Shown here piece after piece: positions 5,578-21,251 of a stretch of DNA of 21,251 nt. The position numbers were made by a program, and so were the translations under genes. The stretch covers positions 1-21,251 of the IMG/VR virus record IMGVR_UViG_3300024306_000548, one strand, 5' to 3'. The notes below the pieces were generated by a model. It had not been told where the DNA came from, ran no database searches, and was given only the letters and a program-made list of their open reading frames with translations. Position 1 is the stretch's first letter. Every line of letters starts with the position of its first letter. The stretch comes from a virus.

Positions 5578-5652
5578 GCGCTCGGTTACTGGCGGTCGGT
5601 TAGGAGACTCTAAATCTCTGGTTGGCGGGTTCGATTCCCGTCGAGCGCACCA
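5578..5652 (+). tRNA. tRNA with CUA anticodon (amber suppressor)
   Basis: Acceptor GCGCTCG (5578-5584) pairs fully with CGAGCGC (5642-5648), followed by A73 and an encoded CCA (5650-5652). Anticodon arm: GGAGA/TCTCT around loop CTCTAAA (5608-5614), with U33 then CUA at 5610-5612 and A37. Variable loop of 5 (GGTTG). T arm: GCGGG/CCCGT with loop TTCGATT. The D arm is weak: about 3 bp (ACT/GGT), and position 8 is not the usual U. CUA reads UAG stop codons. Reading the loop as Arg(UCU) or Leu(UAA) would lose U33. The charging amino acid is unclear (G1-C72, A73, short variable loop). It may act on the in-frame TAG at 6849. Confidence 0.85.
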
Positions 5653-6842: not shown

Positions 6843-7403
6843 ATGCAATAGATTGAATATGCTTGTAAGGATGTAGTGTTCCATTTTAACAAAAAACACT
6901 TAGAGGACCAATCAATACCTATGTGGGTCCTAAAAACACATGGGGAATCATTTTACGTTCATCACGTTACCTGCGAGATACCTTGGACTACCAAGGAAAC
7001 ACCAGACAACTCGCACACCAAAGGTAGCATCAAGATCAAAGACTGTTTGCTGACTATCGACGGCGACAACTCTGCTACTATTTCTACTCTCACTATATTT
7101 GATAAGATCCGGTTACGGAACCAGAAGCTTGGTATCACCCGAATTATATTTGGTTGGGGATCCACCATGCACAAGGCCTTGGCGGGAAACGAGTTTAAGC
7201 ATTCGCCATTCAAGAATGTAGAAGGTTCGTGTGGCAGCAGTTACATTATTTGCGATCTGCTGAAAAAAGAAGAAGCCACTTTGGCAGCATTGAAGTATCC
7301 AAACAGTTGGCGCATACTCAAACCAAACGAAGCCTATTATCAGAAATATGATCAGAAAGGCACAATTTGGGAAGAAGATGAACTTGACTTAGAAGAAGAA
7401 TAA
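6843..7403 (+). CDS. Phage protein with in-frame amber at codon 3
   Basis: ATG 6843 has an excellent SD (AAGGA, 8-9 bases upstream) but reads ATG CAA TAG ATT GAA TAT, then stays open for 183 further codons (IEYACKDVVFHFNKKHLED onward) to TAA at 7401. With UAG suppressed the protein is 186 aa. Otherwise translation could restart at GTG 6876, which has AAGG 5 bases ahead, giving 175 aa beginning MFHFNKKH. The 10 residues between TAG and GTG look like genuine coding sequence. The suppressor tRNA at 5578 could decode this codon. The protein has an alpha/beta pattern, a Gly/Ser-rich GWGST, and an acidic tail EEDELDLEEE. Function unknown. Confidence 0.7.
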
Positions 7404-7412
7404 ATATATAAT
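7384..7412 (+). promoter_or_regulatory. Consensus sigma70-like promoter of the tmRNA
   Basis: TTGACT (7384-7389), 17-bp spacer, TATAAT (7407-7412), inside the end of the preceding gene. AATAAATA (7399-7406) overlaps it as a possible late box. Predicted start is about 7419, just before the acceptor piece. Confidence 0.7.
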
Positions 7413-7418
7413 GTAAGT

Positions 7419-7740
7419 TATTGCTGTATGAAGCGGAAGGAAAAGTGTTCTGGACGTGGGTTCGAGGCCCACCACCTCCACCTAAGTGTATAAGGTATAT
7501 TTAGGTGGGGGTGAATTCTGGTTTCGACAGGGCAAAGAGTAGAGAAGTGGACAGCACGGTAAGGCAGAAACCGTAGGGTTGGGGTTTCCCGGCCGTAGAC
7601 GCAAAAAAAGTAATCGCAAACGACGATTCATTTGACTTCGCAGCACTAAGCTTCACAGGTAACACTGTAGGCGGTCGTGTTGCACTAGCAGCCTAAGAAA
7701 CTGCAAGTCTGGGGTAGCTATACCTTATAACCCAAAATAG
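7419..7740 (+). ncRNA. ssrA: Circularly permuted (two-piece) tmRNA
   Basis: The 3' tRNA half comes first. Acceptor piece ~7419-7482: T arm GTGGG/CCCAC around TTCGAGG, then CACCTCC, discriminator A 7480 and CC 7481-7482 (the final A is not encoded). An intervening loop 7483-7506 follows. The coding piece from 7507 begins GGGGGTGAATTCTGG then TTTCGACAGGG. Acceptor stem 7507-7513/7473-7479 pairs 7 of 7 (one G-U), extended by 6-7 more pairs into the loop. ACAGCA (7551-7556) pairs with TGCTGT (7422-7427), the P2 helix that rejoins the two pieces. Pseudoknot 1 and the resume region resemble E. coli (AAAAAAAGTAATC then GCAAACGACG). It rescues stalled ribosomes and tags nascent chains; the 3' end of the coding piece is uncertain. 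Confidence 0.92.
7616..7696 (+). other. tmRNA tag reading frame (26 codons)
   Basis: Resume codon GCA 7616; the peptide begins ANDDSFDFAA, continues through LSFTGNT and ends GGRVALAA before TAA 7694-7696. The ANDD start and LAA end are the usual proteobacterial tag signature, LAA being the ClpXP/ClpAP recognition end. The usual tag is about 8-15 residues; here about 14 extra residues lie between a first FAAL and the terminal ALAA. Confidence 0.88.
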
Positions 7741-7741
7741 T

Positions 7742-7766
7742 AAAGGCTACTTCGGTAGCCTTTTTT
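7742..7766 (+). terminator. Rho-independent terminator of tmRNA
   Basis: AAAGGCTAC/GTAGCCTTT stem around a TTCG tetraloop, followed by a run of six T. Confidence 0.93.
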
Positions 7767-7767
7767 A

Positions 7768-7796
7768 TTGCACTCGCACAACAAAGACTATATACT
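7768..7796 (+). promoter_or_regulatory. Sigma70-like promoter of outer-membrane protein gene
   Basis: TTGCAC (7768-7773), 17-bp spacer, TATACT (7791-7796), beginning right behind the tmRNA terminator. Predicted start about 7803, inside the dyad at 7801-7826. Confidence 0.7.
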
Positions 7797-7890: not shown

Positions 7891-8442
7891 ATGAAGAAAA
7901 TTGCATTAGCAACAGTATTGGTTTTGGCCGCTTCGGTAGCCTCAGCCGCAGAAATGGGTCTAGAGTATAAGGACTATAACGGAGTAAATGGTGGCGACAA
8001 TGCCAATGGTTACAGTTTAACTGTAGCAGGCAATGTAGCACCTGGCATCAAGTTAGATGCTAAATTCCAAAATAAACAAGTCGATGGAACTAACACCTTG
8101 TCAACTCGTTTAGAAACAGGTGTAACTGGTTCTGCTACTATTTCTGGTCCTGTATCAGCATATGTTCGTGGTGCAGTCGGCGAGAAGTTCACTAATACCA
8201 CAGACTTTTCATACTACTCAATCGAACCGGGTGTAGCGGTCAAACAAGGTCCAGTTGGTGTTAGCCTAGGTTGGAGATATCGTGATGCATTCAACGATGC
8301 TAACGGTGACCAGACCAGAACATGGCGGGCTAAACTAGGTTACGATCTAACCAAAGTAGACAATGTCTATGTAGGTTACGACCGTCAACGAGGTGACAGC
8401 GACTATAACGCTTGGCGCATTGGCTACGTAAGAAGTTTCTAA
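7891..8442 (+). CDS. Small outer-membrane beta-barrel protein
   Basis: 183 aa. A signal peptide of about 19 residues (MKKIALATVLVLAASVASA) is cleaved before AEMG. The rest alternates polar and hydrophobic residues in strand-length blocks, rich in Gly, Asn and Tyr. The chain ends YVRSF, with the C-terminal Phe that BAM recognises. The size suits an 8-stranded barrel. SD AAGGAA precedes ATG. It has its own promoter, operator dyad and terminator, so it is a single-gene cassette. A phage copy could mask receptors (superinfection exclusion) or alter permeability; both are inference. It could also be a host-derived porin fragment. Confidence 0.85.
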   Translation: MKKIALATVLVLAASVASAAEMGLEYKDYNGVNGGDNANGYSLTVAGNVAPGIKLDAKFQNKQVDGTNTLSTRLETGVTGSATISGPVSAYVRGAVGEKFTNTTDFSYYSIEPGVAVKQGPVGVSLGWRYRDAFNDANGDQTRTWRAKLGYDLTKVDNVYVGYDRQRGDSDYNAWRIGYVRSF

Positions 8443-8459
8443 TCCAATTAGATTCCACC

Positions 8460-8482
8460 AAAGGCCCCTAAGGGGCCTTTTT
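8460..8482 (+). terminator. Rho-independent terminator
   Basis: AAAGGCCCC/GGGGCCTTT with loop TAA and five T; ends the outer-membrane protein unit. Confidence 0.94.
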
Positions 8483-8545
8483 ATTTTCCAAAACGTTATT
8501 GATTTTTTCTATTAGCGTTATTAAAAAATATTTAGGAAAAACCTA

Positions 8546-8575
8546 TTGATTTTACGTTTTAATAGGATATATAAT
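8546..8575 (+). promoter_or_regulatory. Sigma70-like promoter of the peroxide-defence operon
   Basis: TTGATT (8546-8551), 18-bp spacer, TATAAT (8570-8575). An inverted repeat CCTATT (8542-8547) / AATAGG (8561-8566) brackets the -35 to spacer region and could be a regulator site. The leader to ATG 8631 is about 48 bases, with SD AAGGAG. Confidence 0.7.
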
Positions 8576-8630
8576 ACACACATAGAACAGAAGTTCTTAA
8601 AAGTTTTCAAACACACACAAGGAGATTGAA

Positions 8631-9164
8631 ATGAAAACAGTTGGTAATAAACTAGAAAAATTTGCCGTAACAGGAGTTAATCCAGGTAAGGATGATTTTT
8701 TCACAATTACAGACGAATCATTTGCTGGCAAGTGGAAAGTAATCGTTTACTATCCAAAGGACTTTACATTCGTATGTCCAACTGAAATCGTTGCATATGA
8801 TAAACTATTCCAAGACTTTGCTGACCGTGATGCTGTATTGTTGACTGGTTCAACAGACAACGAGTTCTGCAAACTTGCATGGCAAGCTGCACACGAGGAT
8901 CTAAAGAAGATCAAGCATATTCAATTCGCTGACACACAGCGTGGTGAACTAAGTCTTATTGAGCAACTAGGTGTATTCTATGCTCCAGCCGGTGCTGCAC
9001 TTCGCGCCACATTCATCGTTGACCCGGACAACGTTATCCAACACGTTACTGTCAACAACTTGAACGTTGGTCGTAGCCCAGAAGAAACTCTACGTATTCT
9101 TGATGCGCTACAAACTGGCGAACTTTGTGCATGTAACCGCACAGTCGGCGGCGAAACACTGTAA
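8631..9164 (+). CDS. ahpC: Peroxiredoxin AhpC, mycobacterial type
   Basis: 177-aa 2-Cys peroxiredoxin that reduces H2O2 and organic peroxides. Peroxidatic C49 sits in PKDFTFVCPTE. The C-terminal ELCACNR gives resolving-cysteine candidates C166 and C168, the CxC arrangement of Mycobacterium AhpC, which is recycled by AhpD rather than AhpF. Consistently, an ahpD gene lies 500 bases downstream in the same run. The chain is slightly shorter than bacterial AhpC (~187-195). Good SD (AAGGAG). The stop overlaps the next ATG (TAATG). Confidence 0.95.
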   Translation: MKTVGNKLEKFAVTGVNPGKDDFFTITDESFAGKWKVIVYYPKDFTFVCPTEIVAYDKLFQDFADRDAVLLTGSTDNEFCKLAWQAAHEDLKKIKHIQFADTQRGELSLIEQLGVFYAPAGAALRATFIVDPDNVIQHVTVNNLNVGRSPEETLRILDALQTGELCACNRTVGGETL

Positions 9165-9496
9165 TGTATTATCACGCACACGTCTACTGGAAAACACAAG
9201 AACAGCGTTTGATTGCTCTTGTGCTTAGAGACATGCTTTCTAAGTTAGACTGTTCGTTAGGCAGGGTTTGGGATGAGCCCATTGGCCCCCATCCTCTGCC
9301 AATGTATCAAGTTAACTTTAATAGTAAAAATTATAAAGAGGTTGTTTCGTTACTTAAAGATAAGAATATTAGCATTCTTATTCATGAAGACACAGGAGAC
9401 GACCTGCGTGACCATACAGAAGGTGCTCGTTGGATAGGTCAAGAACTCAAACTTGACCTTGAATGGTTAGAAAAATACACAAGGAGTAAAAAATGA
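9164..9496 (+). CDS. DOPA 4,5-dioxygenase-family protein
   Basis: 110 aa, matching the small DOPA-dioxygenase-like family: YHAHVYW (H4, H6), GRVWDEPIGPHPLPMYQV (H43), LIHEDTGDDLRDHTEGARWIG (H74, H84) and LDLEWLE. These His residues are the usual metal-site candidates. Bacterial members are mostly uncharacterised, so ring cleavage of a catechol is known only for plant/fungal relatives. It sits between ahpC and ahpD, overlapping both neighbours by 1 and 4 bases, which implies a role in the same oxidative-stress unit. That role is inference. Confidence 0.88.
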   Translation: MYYHAHVYWKTQEQRLIALVLRDMLSKLDCSLGRVWDEPIGPHPLPMYQVNFNSKNYKEVVSLLKDKNISILIHEDTGDDLRDHTEGARWIGQELKLDLEWLEKYTRSKK

Positions 9497-9654
9497 AACC
9501 AGTATTGATACAAAACTTAATCAAACACAACAAGGGAAAGTATAAGGCAACTCCTATTACTGAAGAAGACCGTAAACAGCATGATCGTGCTATGGGAAAG
9601 TTTATCTTTTGGTTTGTGGCATTTTTGTTTATTACGGGTCTCGTAATTGCCTAA
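9493..9654 (+). CDS. Small single-pass membrane protein (53 aa)
   Basis: Begins ATGA on the previous stop, with AAGGAG ahead. A basic N-terminal half (LIKHNKGKYKATPITEEDRKQHDR) precedes one C-terminal membrane segment (FIFWFVAFLFITGLVIA), so it looks C-tail anchored with the bulk in the cytoplasm. No family recognised. It is embedded in the peroxide-defence operon. Confidence 0.75.
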   Translation: MKPVLIQNLIKHNKGKYKATPITEEDRKQHDRAMGKFIFWFVAFLFITGLVIA

Positions 9655-9664
9655 GGAGACAAAC

Positions 9665-10180
9665 ATGACAGCATGGGTAGATACAATTAAAGAAGCATTA
9701 CCTGAGTATGCTAAAGACACTAAACTGAATCTCGATTCAGTCGTGAAGCGTTCAACCCTACCGCAGGAAGTAGCAGAAGGTTGTGCCGTGGCAGCAGCAA
9801 TGGCTACAGGCAACGGAAAATTGGTTAGCTTTATTCAAAGCGGTATGGAAAATACTATAGAGAGAGATGCTGCCTTAACAGCCGCAAGTCTAATGGGTAT
9901 GAACAATGTTTGGTATCCGTATGTAGAAATGGTAGACGATCCAGCACTTAAGGGATTGCCACCTCAGCTACGTATGAATGCTATCAGCACACACGGGGGC
10001 ACGACACAGGACCGTTTTGAAGCTTATGCTTTATCGGCCAGTATCGTAGGCAAATGCCATTTCTGTGTGGCAGCACATTATGATACTTTAAAGAAGGCAG
10101 GTTACACCGTAGAACAATTACGTGATATTGGACGTATAGCGGCAGTTATCACTAGTGTGGCAAAGGTGTTAAACAGTTAA
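9665..10180 (+). CDS. ahpD: Alkylhydroperoxidase AhpD
   Basis: 171 aa from ATG 9665 (SD AAGGAG); a longer TTG start lacks support. AhpD landmarks: E119, C131-HF-C134 and H138 in KCHFCVAAHYDTLKKAG. In Mycobacterium AhpD, Cys130/Cys133 with Glu118 and His137 relay electrons from lipoamide dehydrogenase/SucB to AhpC. Here the residue before the second Cys is Phe, while the His follows the first Cys; from memory the mycobacterial order is the reverse. The pairing with ahpC gives the phage a complete AhpF-independent peroxide reductase that would draw on host lipoamide. Confidence 0.93.
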   Translation: MTAWVDTIKEALPEYAKDTKLNLDSVVKRSTLPQEVAEGCAVAAAMATGNGKLVSFIQSGMENTIERDAALTAASLMGMNNVWYPYVEMVDDPALKGLPPQLRMNAISTHGGTTQDRFEAYALSASIVGKCHFCVAAHYDTLKKAGYTVEQLRDIGRIAAVITSVAKVLNS

Positions 10181-10383: not shown

Positions 10384-10445
10384 TGTAATATTACACACAG
10401 TAAAGAGCGGTAAATATTAGCACTATGCTAAAAACTTACCGCTCT
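10384..10445 (+). promoter_or_regulatory. Palindrome and nested inverted repeat around a start codon
   Basis: TGTAATATTACA (10384-10395) is a perfect 12-bp palindrome. AGAGCGGTAA (10404-10413) pairs perfectly with TTACCGCTCT (10436-10445). Inside, TTAGCA (10417-10422) pairs with TGCTAA (10426-10431) around CTA. The ATG (10425-10427) is therefore partly in the inner stem, and the right outer arm falls in codons 4-7. No SD is near the start. A GGTAAATA late box (10409-10416) lies in the left arm. Confidence 0.6.
10409..10416 (+). promoter_or_regulatory. T4-type late promoter candidate, nearly leaderless
   Basis: GGTAAATA; by T4 spacing the RNA would start near 10422, two or three bases before the ATG at 10425. 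It shares the GGTAAATA sequence with 17103-17110, which also lies just ahead of an SD-less start. Confidence 0.45.
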
Positions 10446-11270
10446 ATTTTTATCTCAGATATACATTTGGGAACCCGAGATTGTAAAGCAGAACAACTAA
10501 ACAACTTTTTAAAGCACAATACTTGCGAAACACTTTATCTAGTTGGCGACATTATCGATGCATGGCGCATACAACAAAATAAATGGCGATGGAAACAAAG
10601 CCACACGAATGTCGTTAGAAGAATCATGGGACACGCCAAACGCGGCACTCGAGTCGTATATATAGCAGGTAATCATGACGAATTCTTAAGACCATTGATG
10701 CCTTATGGTATCGGTTTTGGTAACATAGAAGTTGTTAATCAAATAGAACATATCGGTGTAGACACTAAACACTACCTTGTGGTTCACGGAGATCTATTCG
10801 ATGGTATTACTAGACTAGCACCTTGGTTGAGTTTCTTAGGAGACAAAGCCTACGATTTTGTTCTAATGTTAAACAACAAGTTTAATTGGATTCGACATCG
10901 TATGGGTTTTGGCTATTGGAGTTTATCTAAATATCTCAAGAGTCGTGTTAAGAAAGCCGTAGATTTTATATTCCAGTTTGAAAAGAATCTAGTAGCCTAC
11001 TGTCGAAAGCGTGGGTTTGATGGTGTCATCTGCGGACATATACATCATGCAGAGATCAAAGAGATAGACGGTATGATTTACATGAATGACGGCGATTGGG
11101 TAGAATCAATGACGGCTCTGGTAGAACATCATGACGGTCATTGGGAAATCATAACTTGGACCAAGGAGCGGGATGATGTGGTTAATGATATTAATAGCAG
11201 TTCACATAAACAATCCTCAAGACGTGCCAGGAAGGATAACTCTACAGTTTCAAACACAGCAACACTGTGA
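10425..11270 (+). CDS. LpxH-like metallophosphoesterase (UDP-2,3-diacylglucosamine diphosphatase family)
   Basis: 281 aa with the calcineurin-type dimetal signature in order: SDIHLG (D12, H14), VGDIID (D42), AGNHDE (N83, H84), VVHGD (H121) and CGHIHH (H205, H207). IHLGTRDCKAEQL and the spacing match the LpxH/YbbF-like branch that cleaves UDP-2,3-diacylglucosamine in lipid A synthesis. The Ser/Arg/Lys-rich tail after residue ~255 is unusual. In a phage it could rework lipid A or act on another pyrophosphate; the exact substrate is not shown. The start lies within a nested hairpin without SD. A glycosyltransferase follows, which supports an envelope role. Confidence 0.85.
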   Translation: MLKTYRSIFISDIHLGTRDCKAEQLNNFLKHNTCETLYLVGDIIDAWRIQQNKWRWKQSHTNVVRRIMGHAKRGTRVVYIAGNHDEFLRPLMPYGIGFGNIEVVNQIEHIGVDTKHYLVVHGDLFDGITRLAPWLSFLGDKAYDFVLMLNNKFNWIRHRMGFGYWSLSKYLKSRVKKAVDFIFQFEKNLVAYCRKRGFDGVICGHIHHAEIKEIDGMIYMNDGDWVESMTALVEHHDGHWEIITWTKERDDVVNDINSSSHKQSSRRARKDNSTVSNTATL

Positions 11271-11330
11271 ACAGGTTTTATCAACAATGTCTTATTGGTT
11301 AAAGTTTGAAAGTTTTAAGGTAGAGGGAAG

Positions 11331-12047
11331 ATGTCAGAAAATAAATTAAGTGATTTGATTACTATTGTAATACCTTGCAAAAACGAAGAAAATTATATTT
11401 TTAGTCTTTTAGAACACTTGCTATGGCAAAATGTTGGAGATACTAAAATCTATATCGCAGATGCATCCACAGATAAAACAAGAGATGTAATAGCAAAATA
11501 CTTTGATAGATTAAATATTGAAATCATAGATGGTGGACCTGTCGCTGTTGCAAGAAACAACGGAGCCAGATTAGTCAATACCCCTTATATTTTATTTGTA
11601 GATAGCGATGTTAGATTTTTTTCTCCTTATACAATAAAAGACTGCGTTGAAACTATTCATTCAAATAACTTAGACTTAGTGTCTGTAAATGCAAAATGCT
11701 ATGTCCGTGATATTCGAGCACAGATCGGATTCTCAATTTTTAATTTTATCAATAATATATTGAAACATTGGTCTCCGTTCGCAGTCGGGGCCTTTATGTT
11801 GACTCGAACAGACAAGTTTAGGGAATATGGCGGATTCGAAGAACATTATGTAGCCAGCGAGGACTTTTTCCTTTCAAAAAAATATTCTCCAGAAAAGTTT
11901 AAAATAGTGAATCATTATTTTGGACAAGATAATAGGAGATTTAAAAAAATGGGTTATTTTGGTATGGCATGGTTTTTATTGAAAAACTTCTATAATAGAA
12001 ATAATAAAGCATATTGGAATACCGTTGATCATTCTCGTTATTGGTGA
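11331..12047 (+). CDS. GT2 (GT-A fold) glycosyltransferase
   Basis: 238 aa. The N-terminal nucleotide-sugar fold is clear: ITIVIPCKNEENYIFSLLEHL, then IYIADASTDKTRD, GPVAVARNNGA and the metal-binding FVDSDVRFF, with VASEDFFLSKKY as the acidic ED catalytic region. The C-terminus is basic and aromatic. SD is GAGGG, with ATG at 11331. The gene is more AT-rich than its neighbours (many AAA/ATT runs), suggesting separate acquisition. Likely roles are glycosylating host envelope, phage DNA or virion proteins; the sequence does not decide. Confidence 0.88.
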   Translation: MSENKLSDLITIVIPCKNEENYIFSLLEHLLWQNVGDTKIYIADASTDKTRDVIAKYFDRLNIEIIDGGPVAVARNNGARLVNTPYILFVDSDVRFFSPYTIKDCVETIHSNNLDLVSVNAKCYVRDIRAQIGFSIFNFINNILKHWSPFAVGAFMLTRTDKFREYGGFEEHYVASEDFFLSKKYSPEKFKIVNHYFGQDNRRFKKMGYFGMAWFLLKNFYNRNNKAYWNTVDHSRYW

Positions 12048-12082
12048 TCATAAAATACACTATGATCATTTAATGATTATCA
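12026..12082 (+). promoter_or_regulatory. TGATCAT/AATGAT operator cluster upstream of pqqA
   Basis: TGATCAT occurs three times, at 12026, 12045 and 12063 (spacings 19 and 18 bp, about two helical turns), then TGATTATCA at 12074-12082. TGATCATA (12045-12052) and TATGATCA (12061-12068) are a perfect inverted repeat. ATCATTTAATGAT (12065-12077) is a perfect 13-bp palindrome. The cluster begins in the end of the glycosyltransferase gene and ends 26 bp before the pqqA -10. Confidence 0.55.
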
Positions 12083-12108
12083 GTATGGTTTTCATGGTGT
12101 TTTTGTCA

Positions 12109-12114
12109 TATAAT
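12109..12114 (+). promoter_or_regulatory. -10 element of pqqA promoter
   Basis: TATAAT is exact, but no good -35 stands 16-18 bp upstream (TGGTTT at 12086). With the dyads just upstream this suggests an activator-dependent promoter (inference). Leader to ATG is about 50 bases. Confidence 0.5.
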
Positions 12115-12171
12115 ACAGATACATACTAATGCAACGGTATGATATTTTATTTGTTAACAAGGAGAAACACT

Positions 12172-12243
12172 ATGTGGACCAAACCAGAAGCAGTTGAAAT
12201 GCGTTACGGTTTTGAAGTTACTATGTATATCATGAATCGATAA
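12172..12243 (+). CDS. pqqA: PqqA, pyrroloquinoline quinone precursor peptide
   Basis: 23-aa peptide, exactly the usual PqqA size. It begins MWTKPEAVEMRYG and ends FEVTMYIMNR. The family hallmark is E-x-x-x-Y: here E15 and Y19 in GFEVTMY, the Glu and Tyr whose side chains PqqE crosslinks to build PQQ. MWTKP, GFEVTMY and the final NR match beta/gammaproteobacterial PqqA as I remember them. SD AAGGAG lies 8 bases ahead, and a strong terminator follows within 25 bases, so it is a complete one-gene unit. No pqqBCDE is present in the window; the peptide would have to use host enzymes. PQQ is the cofactor of methanol dehydrogenases (MxaF/XoxF), pointing to a methylotrophic host. Confidence 0.9.
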   Translation: MWTKPEAVEMRYGFEVTMYIMNR

Positions 12244-12263: not shown

Positions 12264-12288
12264 AAAGGCCCACTTCGGTGGGCTTTTT
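12264..12288 (+). terminator. Rho-independent terminator of pqqA
   Basis: GCCCAC/GTGGGC with TTCG loop, extended by a G-U and A-T pairs, followed by TTTTT. Confidence 0.94.
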
Positions 12289-12289
12289 C

Positions 12290-12317
12290 TTGACTTCTGT
12301 GTTAAGTATGTTACAAT
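12290..12317 (+). promoter_or_regulatory. Sigma70-like promoter of the SGNH-SDR pair
   Basis: TTGACT (12290-12295), 16-bp spacer, TACAAT (12312-12317), starting right at the pqqA terminator. Expected start about 12324. Confidence 0.65.
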
Positions 12318-12333: not shown

Positions 12334-12744
12334 ATGTTAGAATGTTTAATTTTAGGTGATAGTATCGCAGTTGGAACAGCTAACGTTCGCAAAGAATGCG
12401 TGAGTTATAGTGTTGGCGGAATCAATACTAACGGATGGAATAAAAAATTTTCCGATAAAGAATTATTGGCCGGAACAGTTATTATTAGTTTGGGCACTAA
12501 CGATCATAGCGGAGTCCATACTTTTAAAGAATTGAGTGCAATGAGATCTCGTGTAACGGCATCTCGTGTATATTGGATTCTTCCTCCCTGCAATGACAAA
12601 TTCTGTAAGCCTCATGTAAATGACGTTGTAGAAATTATTGCTCGCAGTCGCGGTGATATCGTTATCAAAACGGATCGACTACAAAAAGATGCTATTCATC
12701 CTAGCTGGGCAGGCTATAAAGAACTAGCGGAGAAAACACGTTGA
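12334..12744 (+). CDS. Small SGNH/GDSL hydrolase
   Basis: 136 aa with the conserved blocks: LGDSI (catalytic Ser10), VGG around residue 28, LGTND (54-57), and DAIHPSWAGY with D119 and H122 completing the triad. It is shorter than typical bacterial SGNH esterases (~180-200) but all blocks are present. No signal peptide, so it is cytoplasmic. SD AAAGG. It overlaps the next start (TTGA). Substrate unknown; removal of acyl groups from glycans fits the neighbouring sugar genes. Confidence 0.85.
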   Translation: MLECLILGDSIAVGTANVRKECVSYSVGGINTNGWNKKFSDKELLAGTVIISLGTNDHSGVHTFKELSAMRSRVTASRVYWILPPCNDKFCKPHVNDVVEIIARSRGDIVIKTDRLQKDAIHPSWAGYKELAEKTR

Positions 12745-13709
12745 ACATTTTAGTAACAGGTGGCCTAGGACTTATCGGCCATAATGTCGTTAGAAAATTA
12801 GAAGAACAAGGGCATACTGTGGTTGTCTATGATAACATGACCAACTATGGTATTATTCCTCAAGAAGAAATCAATCATCTAATTCAAGAACGCAGGAAGT
12901 TTATCAAGCATTCTGAAATACACGAAATGGACATCCTGCAAGTGAGCATGTTTGATTGGTTGCTGCCCAAACACAACATCGAAGCAATCATACATCTTGC
13001 TTCATTTCCTCGGCAGAAAGTTGTTAATGCCAATCCCTGTTGGGGCAGCACAGTTATGAGCACTGGACTATTGGCCTTACTTGAAAAGGCTGTCCAGCAC
13101 GGTGTTCGTAGATTTACCTATGCCAGCTCTAGTATGGTGTATGGCGACTTTCAAGATTTCGTCACAGAAGATGCTATTTGTCGTCCTCAAGGACAATACG
13201 GTATTCTTAAACTAGCAGGCGAATGGCTAGTCAAAGACTACACTCGTAAGCATGGTATCGAACATACTATCCTAAGACCAAGTGCCGTGTATGGCCCACT
13301 TGATGTAGAAGATCGTGTCATCTCAAAGTTCTTGCTCACTGCCATGCGAGGAGAAACACTTAAGGTAAACGGTCCTAACGAAACTCTAGATTTTACCTAT
13401 GTAGATGATGCCGCCAATGGATTTGTTGCTGCCACTCTTTCAGACAAAGCAGCCAACGGCACATACAATATCACCAAAAGTCATAGTAAAACACTTCTAA
13501 GTGCCGCCGAACTTGCAGTAAAATTGGCAGGTCGTGGCAGCATCGAAGTTCGAGATAAAGATGCAGATTTTCCTAGTCGCGGAGCATTAGATATTACCCG
13601 AGCCCGAAATGACTTTGGATTTGATCCAAAAGTAGATGTAGATGAAGGATTCCAAATTTACTACGATTGGCTCAAAAATGATCCTTATTTTGGTGTTGAC
13701 AAACGCTGA
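12741..13709 (+). CDS. NAD-dependent epimerase/dehydratase (extended SDR)
   Basis: 322 aa. The N-terminal Rossmann motif is GGLGLIG (7-13), with acidic VVYDN after strand two selecting NAD. The catalytic set is SSS then YGILK (Tyr and Lys about residues 154-158). Later LRPSAVYGP and DFTYVDDAANG are typical of the nucleotide-sugar epimerase branch. Start TTG 12741 overlaps the SGNH stop by TTGA, and the Rossmann strand MNILVTGG begins right there. It probably makes a nucleotide sugar for a glycosyltransferase; the substrate is not determinable. A promoter for the next gene is embedded in its 3' end. Confidence 0.92.
   Translation: MNILVTGGLGLIGHNVVRKLEEQGHTVVVYDNMTNYGIIPQEEINHLIQERRKFIKHSEIHEMDILQVSMFDWLLPKHNIEAIIHLASFPRQKVVNANPCWGSTVMSTGLLALLEKAVQHGVRRFTYASSSMVYGDFQDFVTEDAICRPQGQYGILKLAGEWLVKDYTRKHGIEHTILRPSAVYGPLDVEDRVISKFLLTAMRGETLKVNGPNETLDFTYVDDAANGFVAATLSDKAANGTYNITKSHSKTLLSAAELAVKLAGRGSIEVRDKDADFPSRGALDITRARNDFGFDPKVDVDEGFQIYYDWLKNDPYFGVDKR

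Positions 13710-20901: not shown

Positions 20902-21251
<350 letters not shown>

What the first reader, a model, noticed from the sequence alone, without database searches (positions are those of the whole stretch)
12172..12243. A phage-encoded PqqA peptide as a self-contained transcription unit
Seen: a 23-codon gene with good SD, the E15-x-x-x-Y19 crosslink pair in GFEVTMY, its own TATAAT box and operator-like dyads, and a strong terminator. Known: PqqA is the ribosomal precursor that PqqB/C/D/E mature into PQQ, cofactor of methanol dehydrogenases. Inferred: the phage supplies only the substrate peptide so that host enzymes make more PQQ, or divert it, during infection of a methylotroph. This is a metabolic takeover by peptide dosage rather than by an enzyme. 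I do not know of a described example with certainty.
Basis: partly seen in the sequence, partly recalled or inferred. Interest (0 to 1): 0.95.

Follow-up and report, generated by a model that had tools for sequence, protein, structure and literature searches.

The report
Phage PQQ-precursor gene with host-type operator
This phage carries a complete 23-residue gene for PqqA, the peptide that bacteria consume to make the methanol-oxidation cofactor PQQ; the same gene, usually unannotated, sits in many unrelated phages of methanol-eating bacteria, mostly behind a copy of the bacterium's own pqqA promoter boxes.

Summary
Window 12172-12243 encodes PqqA (Pfam PF08042, 35.9 bits against a cut-off of 21.1; NCBIfam equivalog TIGR02107, 34.8 against 20) with E15 and Y19, an SD, a TATAAT box and a strong terminator, inside a tailed-phage contig. 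The claim that no example is described is wrong: a Lake Baikal methylotroph phage with PqqA was reported in 2020.

What appears new is scale and wiring. At least 120 IMG/VR contigs and nine phage isolates of Methylophilales (Venkman, P19250A, MEP301, MEP401/402, four Melnitz strains) carry pqqA, nearly always unannotated. In a scan that left positions 15-19 free, every phage peptide kept E15, T17 and Y19. None of 50 pqqA-bearing phage records has PqqE; one has a methanol dehydrogenase.

Phage pqqA is preceded by an operator-like box that also lies ahead of pqqA in the host family, with matching spacing to the -10 box. Methylophilaceae themselves hold a median of four pqqA copies. Best explanation: the phage adds one more dose of the only consumed component of PQQ synthesis, under host-type control, to keep methanol oxidation running during infection. 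Function is inferred; no expression or biochemistry was available.

The parts
12172..12243 (+). pqqA, 23 codons, MWTKPEAVEMRYGFEVTMYIMNR
   Evidence: PF08042 35.9 bits; TIGR02107 34.8 bits; pN 0.15 versus pS 0.60 among synteny-sampled orthologues
12160..12164 (+). Shine-Dalgarno AGGAG
   Evidence: read directly; similar SD in nearly all phage pqqA
12069..12087 (+). host-type pqqA operator box TTTAATGATTATCAGTATG
   Evidence: best PWM site in the window, 20.7 bits, next best 11.5; motif found de novo and cross-validated; in host pqqA promoters
12109..12114 (+). -10 box TATAAT, about 40 nt after the start of the operator box
   Evidence: preferred operator to -10 offset of 39-40 nt in phages
12121..12142 (+). 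imperfect dyad ACATACT...GGTATGA downstream of the -10; ACATACT...AGTATGT in relatives
   Evidence: alignment of orthologues; function unknown
12264..12289 (+). intrinsic terminator of pqqA
   Evidence: fold -18.5 kcal/mol, z -4.5; hairpin kept in L314 by changes on both sides of the stem (CCC/GGG to CTC/GAG)
12290..12317 (+). promoter-like site of the next gene (TTGACT-16-TACAAT), i.e. the boundary of the pqqA unit
12334..13709 (+). downstream SGNH-like hydrolase and sugar epimerase genes, the synteny anchor in relatives
   Evidence: Pfam; conserved next to pqqA in L303-L305, L309-L315, L084

Best explanation
The phage carries a functional, stand-alone pqqA under a host-type pqqA promoter. 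On infection of a Methylophilaceae cell, the host regulator and RNA polymerase read it, and the host's PqqD/PqqE/PqqB/PqqC convert the peptide to PQQ. Shown here: gene identity, purifying selection, conservation of the cross-linked residues, recurrence in unrelated phages of one host family, absence of PqqE, and the shared operator architecture. Inferred: expression during infection, maturation by host enzymes, higher PQQ, and phage benefit.
For: Profile membership. In the scan that fixed only residues 1-2 and 9-14, every peptide keeps E15, T17 and Y19, while positions 4, 6, 7, 21 and 23 vary. pS 0.61 and pN 0.10 over 165 unique sequences; 0.60 and 0.15 in the synteny-sampled set. Nine Methylophilales phage isolates of at least three groups carry it. 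Melnitz (OM43) has it, whereas the related SAR11 phages Mosig and HTVC008M, both in the collection, give no hit at E<=10. No PqqE in 50 records, one MDH. Hosts: 149 of 150 genomes, median 4 copies. Operator: held-out phage clusters hit at 68-75% with a 2% control rate, 24 of 29 clusters; EM log-likelihood 965 versus 148-186 for control genes; -10 peak at offset 39 in phages, and at 62 in hosts (two boxes 23 bp apart); 19 of 26 perfect host operators lie 91-134 nt ahead of pqqA. Relatives that lack pqqA lack the operator too.
Against: No expression, PQQ or maturation data. Hosts already hold about four copies, so the gain from one more is unproven. Four close relatives (L306-L308, L351) lack pqqA in their records. 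The window variant Y12 is in none of 187 Methylophilaceae genomes, so its exact host is not identified. MEP402 has no good operator at the usual place. A terminator follows only 71 of 173 phage pqqA, though only 82 of 1627 control genes.
Confidence: 0.72

Rival explanations
1. Competitive decoy: the phage peptide occupies PqqD/PqqE and lowers or diverts host PQQ synthesis.
For: A peptide that binds PqqD/PqqE could compete; phage variants differ from host PqqA at Y12 and in the termini.
Against: A blocker need not be a substrate, yet E15, T17 and Y19 are kept by every phage peptide in an unconstrained sample. Many phage peptides are identical to host PqqA. K4T/S, at first suspected to be phage-specific, is common in hosts.
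Confidence: 0.08
2. Regulator sponge: the operator titrates a host transcription factor and the peptide is incidental.
For: Operator present in 24 of 29 phage clusters.
Against: One site per phage beside several host sites; the peptide is under strong purifying selection; operator-like sites are nearly absent ahead of other phage genes (10 of 1525, all weaker).
Confidence: 0.05
3. Selectively neutral host passenger, or misassigned bacterial DNA.
For: Hosts have many pqqA copies to pick up; one 'Acinetobacter phage' hit is indeed a contig with pqqBCDE.
Against: Nine isolate genomes; tail, DNA polymerase and ligase genes in the 74-kb relative L312; purifying selection over saturated synonymous divergence.
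Confidence: 0.04
4. The peptide is processed to PQQ mainly for a phage-encoded PQQ enzyme or for redox protection rather than for host methanol oxidation.
For: One record (L262) and the Baikal phage VP_266 encode a methanol dehydrogenase (PMC7678222); the window also encodes a peroxiredoxin and an AhpD-like protein.
Against: 49 of 50 records show no such dehydrogenase, though most are fragments; no link from PQQ to the redox genes was found.
Confidence: 0.08

Closest known systems
PqqA in the Lake Baikal T4-like Methylophilaceae phage VP_266 (Coutinho et al. 2020, PMC7678222)
   Same: Phage of a methylotroph encoding PqqA, interpreted as a boost to PQQ and methanol oxidation.
   Different: There PqqA accompanied a phage methanol dehydrogenase and was one case; here it usually stands alone, recurs in many lineages, and has a host-type operator.
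Stand-alone extra pqqA copies of Methylophilaceae (PMC4109929); five pqqA copies also in the methylotroph of PMC9851590
   Same: Same peptide, same promoter boxes (Methylophilaceae), several copies apart from pqqBCDE.
   Different: Chromosomal; hosts often keep two boxes 23 bp apart, phages mostly one of the two.
Cyanophage psbA (from general knowledge, not tested here)
   Same: Logic: the phage replaces the host component that is consumed fastest.
   Different: psbA encodes a protein that wears out; PqqA is a peptide consumed as raw material.
Viral pqqA/pqqD/pqqE listed as phosphorus-cycling AMGs in reservoir sediments (PMC13188868)
   Same: Viral pqqA noted.
   Different: Listed by annotation, without the methylotroph context or regulation.

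Membership tests
PqqA (PF08042 / TIGR02107) | Score above the curated profile cut-offs | tested here: met
   35.9 versus 21.1 and 34.8 versus 20 bits
PqqA (PF08042 / TIGR02107) | Glu and Tyr spaced E-x3-Y, the pair joined into PQQ | tested here: met
   E15 and Y19; kept in every peptide of the unconstrained scan
PqqA (PF08042 / TIGR02107) | Next to pqqBCDE (usual in many bacteria, not required by the family models) | tested here: not met
   None of the neighbouring window ORFs scanned is a Pqq enzyme; PqqE in 0 of 50 other pqqA phage records. Not defining in this host family, where most pqqA copies are stand-alone
PqqA (PF08042 / TIGR02107) | Cross-linked by PqqE with PqqD and converted to PQQ | not testable with these tools
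   needs biochemistry
Phage auxiliary metabolic gene | Host-type metabolic gene within a genuine phage genome | tested here: met
   nine isolates; phage tail and replication genes in relative L312
Phage auxiliary metabolic gene | Expressed during infection and changes host metabolism | not testable with these tools
   no expression data
Host pqqA regulon (operator defined here) | Box TT[AC]ATGA-N3-TC..TA or CTCATGA-N3-TCATGAG at set distance from the -10 ahead of pqqA | tested here: met
   12069-12087, about 40 nt before the -10
Host pqqA regulon (operator defined here) | Bound by the regulator that controls host pqqA | not testable with these tools
   regulator unknown

The most novel reading that the evidence does not exclude
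Phages of Methylophilaceae share a portable cassette, host pqqA operator plus promoter plus pqqA (often plus terminator), that plugs into the host's PQQ regulon. The phage thereby feeds one consumable peptide to host enzymes and keeps methanol oxidation alive after host shut-off. The cassette is near-universal among phages of this host family, has been gained independently by unrelated tailed phages, and has been overlooked because 23-codon genes are not called.
Probability: 0.6. Interest if true: 0.82.

Novelty: new variant of a known kind. Interest (0 to 1): 0.72.

Why it matters
If true, the limiting resource of methylotroph infection is a raw-material peptide rather than an enzyme, and phages solve it with 72 bases and the host's own switch. 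Phage PqqA would be a simple marker for methylotroph phages in metagenomes. It also defines an unnamed host operator and therefore an unknown regulator of PQQ synthesis. Existing lab systems (Venkman, Melnitz and MEP phages on OM43) could test it directly, and published genomes and annotation pipelines would need re-reading for genes this short.

Tried and rejected
Two collection scans used wrong spacings and are void (23 instead of 22 free bases, shown: 21 instead of 18). 'Acinetobacter phage MD-2021a' hit rejected: bacterial pqqABCDE neighbourhood. K4T/S as a phage-specific change rejected: 80 of 150 host genomes have it. No PqqA outside Methylophilales-type phages in the phage collection with a Pseudomonas/alphaproteobacterial-type query. 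tmRNA as host evidence rejected: DNA matches in Methylophilaceae cover only the terminator hairpin. No PDB relative. Gp23 as a T4 marker: not found in the records of the window's lineage, which are incomplete. First single-linkage clustering was inflated by a spurious antisense ORF over pqqA and was redone without it. No paper in the held library was found that describes the pqqA operator.

Full report
WHAT IS THERE. The reading frame at 12172-12243(+) encodes MWTKPEAVEMRYGFEVTMYIMNR. It exceeds the curated cut-offs of both PqqA models, and no other place in the record matches. E15 and Y19, the residues joined into PQQ, are present. An AGGAG ribosome site, a TATAAT box and a strong terminator surround it, and a new promoter-like site for the next gene starts right behind the terminator. 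The record is an IMG/VR virus contig with ribonucleotide reductase genes and an endolysin/baseplate-hub-type protein. A 74-kb relative (L312) carries tail, DNA polymerase and ligase genes.

IT IS NOT THE FIRST. Coutinho et al. 2020 (PMC7678222, read) reported PqqA in a T4-like Methylophilaceae phage from Lake Baikal next to a methanol dehydrogenase. A 2026 paper lists viral pqqA, pqqD and pqqE in reservoir sediments (PMC13188868).

HOW COMMON. tblastn of the phage collection finds the gene in Venkman, P19250A, MEP301, MEP401, MEP402 and four Melnitz strains, plus one metagenomic podovirus. In five of the nine isolate genomes nothing is annotated there; in Melnitz (four strains) the only feature is a hypothetical protein, antisense in the strain inspected. 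The text searches I made of the isolate papers for PQQ returned only growth-medium PQQ (PMC9004378) or nothing (PMC10580990, PMC8024684, PMC8163748). Grouping 191 phage loci by shared neighbouring genes gives 29 clusters, with the window, Venkman/P19250A/MEP301, Melnitz and MEP402 in four different ones; contigs are fragments, so the count is approximate. Melnitz's relatives on SAR11, Mosig and HTVC008M, are in the collection and give no PqqA hit. Non-Methylophilales phages gave none except one 'Acinetobacter phage' with two records; the one inspected has the match beside pqqBCDE and is bacterial in content. I could not list all Methylophilales phages, so 'all isolates' is not claimed.

SELECTION. 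In the pooled set of 161 phage peptides, E15, T17 and Y19 are invariant. Part of that set came from the first scan, which required them; the second scan did not, and the 56 sequences that only it found differ from the first pattern at K4, not at E15 or Y19. Across 165 unique sequences pS is 0.61 and pN 0.10. To avoid choosing by the motif, I sampled relatives through the neighbouring epimerase gene: seven orthologues give pS 0.60 and pN 0.15 in frame, with no such excess in the other two frames. Their peptides drift to forms such as GFEISMY but keep E15 and Y19. Four relatives (L306-L308, L351) have another small ORF in front of the same terminator and no pqqA in their records.

HOST. The phage peptides carry the Methylophilaceae signature, and the commonest forms are identical to host PqqA. 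In 150 Methylophilaceae genomes 149 have pqqA, median four copies, up to twelve; one pqqBCDE set is typical (PMC4109929). K4T, first suspected to be phage-specific, is common in hosts. The window's Y12 occurs in none of 187 host genomes, so this is probably an established phage-lineage variant, and the exact host is unknown.

SUBSTRATE ONLY. No PqqE in 50 pqqA-bearing phage records; one, L262, has a PQQ-dependent methanol dehydrogenase. Most records are partial.

THE OPERATOR. Aligned orthologues share a block about 100 nt upstream. De novo EM on 177 phage pqqA upstream regions finds TT[AC]ATGATTTTC-x-TTA in 87%. Held-out clusters hit at 68-75% with a 2% rate in other phage genes; 24 of 29 clusters hit, and the log-likelihood is 965 against 148-186 for control sets. 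The same EM on host pqqA promoters gives CTCATGA-N3-TCATGAG, an inverted repeat, and the phage matrix finds 61-80% of host promoters at thresholds that take 3-8% of shuffles. A strict search for the host form in 60 genomes hits 26; of 26 sites examined, 19 lie 91-134 nt ahead of pqqA and one ahead of pqqB. Hosts have a second box 23 bp downstream and a -10 at 62 nt from the first; phages have the -10 at 39 nt (42 of 128; background 3.7 per offset) or at 61-62 nt, and a few keep both boxes 23 bp apart. The arithmetic 62-23=39 identifies the common phage box with the host's promoter-proximal box. In phages the right half is degenerate, so dyad symmetry there is weak; homology rests on position and sequence. 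In the window the box is at 12069-12087, by far the best site in 21 kb. Relatives without pqqA lack the box. MEP402 is an exception. A box just upstream of a -10 without a good -35 suggests an activator; that is inference.

TRANSCRIPTION UNIT. A terminator lies within 90 nt of 71 of 173 phage pqqA genes versus 82 of 1627 control genes, so a self-contained unit is frequent but not universal.

MECHANISM. PqqA is consumed one for one; the enzymes turn over (established knowledge; PMC9851590, calls the other Pqq proteins possibly reusable). The host multiplies pqqA alone and the phage does likewise behind the host's own switch. The simplest reading is extra substrate under host-type control during infection. 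A decoy would not need both cross-linked residues; a regulator sponge would not need the peptide. Expression, maturation and benefit remain to be shown.

VERDICT. Observation confirmed. Interpretation right in its core but not first of its kind. New here, as far as the held literature shows: the breadth across unrelated phages and isolates, and the shared host-type operator.

Noticed in passing
window 7370-7787: Permuted, betaproteobacterial-type tmRNA in the phage (Rfam tmRNA_permuted 118 bits, beta_tmRNA 103 bits) with an unusually long predicted tag, ANDDSFDFAALSFTGNTVGGRVALAA; not a recent copy of a Methylophilaceae tmRNA.
   Followed up: partly
window 5578-5652: tRNA with anticodon CTA, called tRNA-Pyl by ARAGORN and possibly an amber suppressor; only 1 of 31 ORFs considered in the window ends in TAG.
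   Followed up: partly
window 20905-21251: Start of an open frame that reads as a DnaK/Hsp70, conserved at 87-96% in relatives.
   Followed up: no
window 7891-10180: Signal-peptide protein that looks like an outer-membrane beta-barrel (no Pfam match), AhpC/Prx-type peroxiredoxin and AhpD/CMD-like protein in a row.
   Followed up: no
window 10425-12047: Metallophosphoesterase (LpxH-like) and glycosyltransferase genes sit between ahpD and pqqA here but not in L313, L314 or L312: a local gene-exchange spot.
   Followed up: partly
L306-L308, L351: A different small ORF (MTKAIKEKKPESSKIRE...) precedes the same terminator where pqqA sits in the other relatives.
   Followed up: partly
L432, L436, L443-L446: In hosts the perfect operator also precedes a secreted glycine-zipper-like outer-membrane protein and a protein with a YHS-like stretch, candidate members of the PQQ regulon.
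   Followed up: no
L262 record (72 kb): Phage record with pqqA and a full-length PQQ-dependent methanol dehydrogenase (608 bits), like Baikal VP_266.
   Followed up: partly
CAKLQF020000010.1 (L127): Record labelled Acinetobacter phage holds pqqABCDE, fur and ppk next to each other, so it is bacterial in content.
   Followed up: yes
L132, L201, L203: Gammaproteobacterial (Methylophaga-type) MAG contigs carry two or three pqqA copies in close tandem.
   Followed up: no
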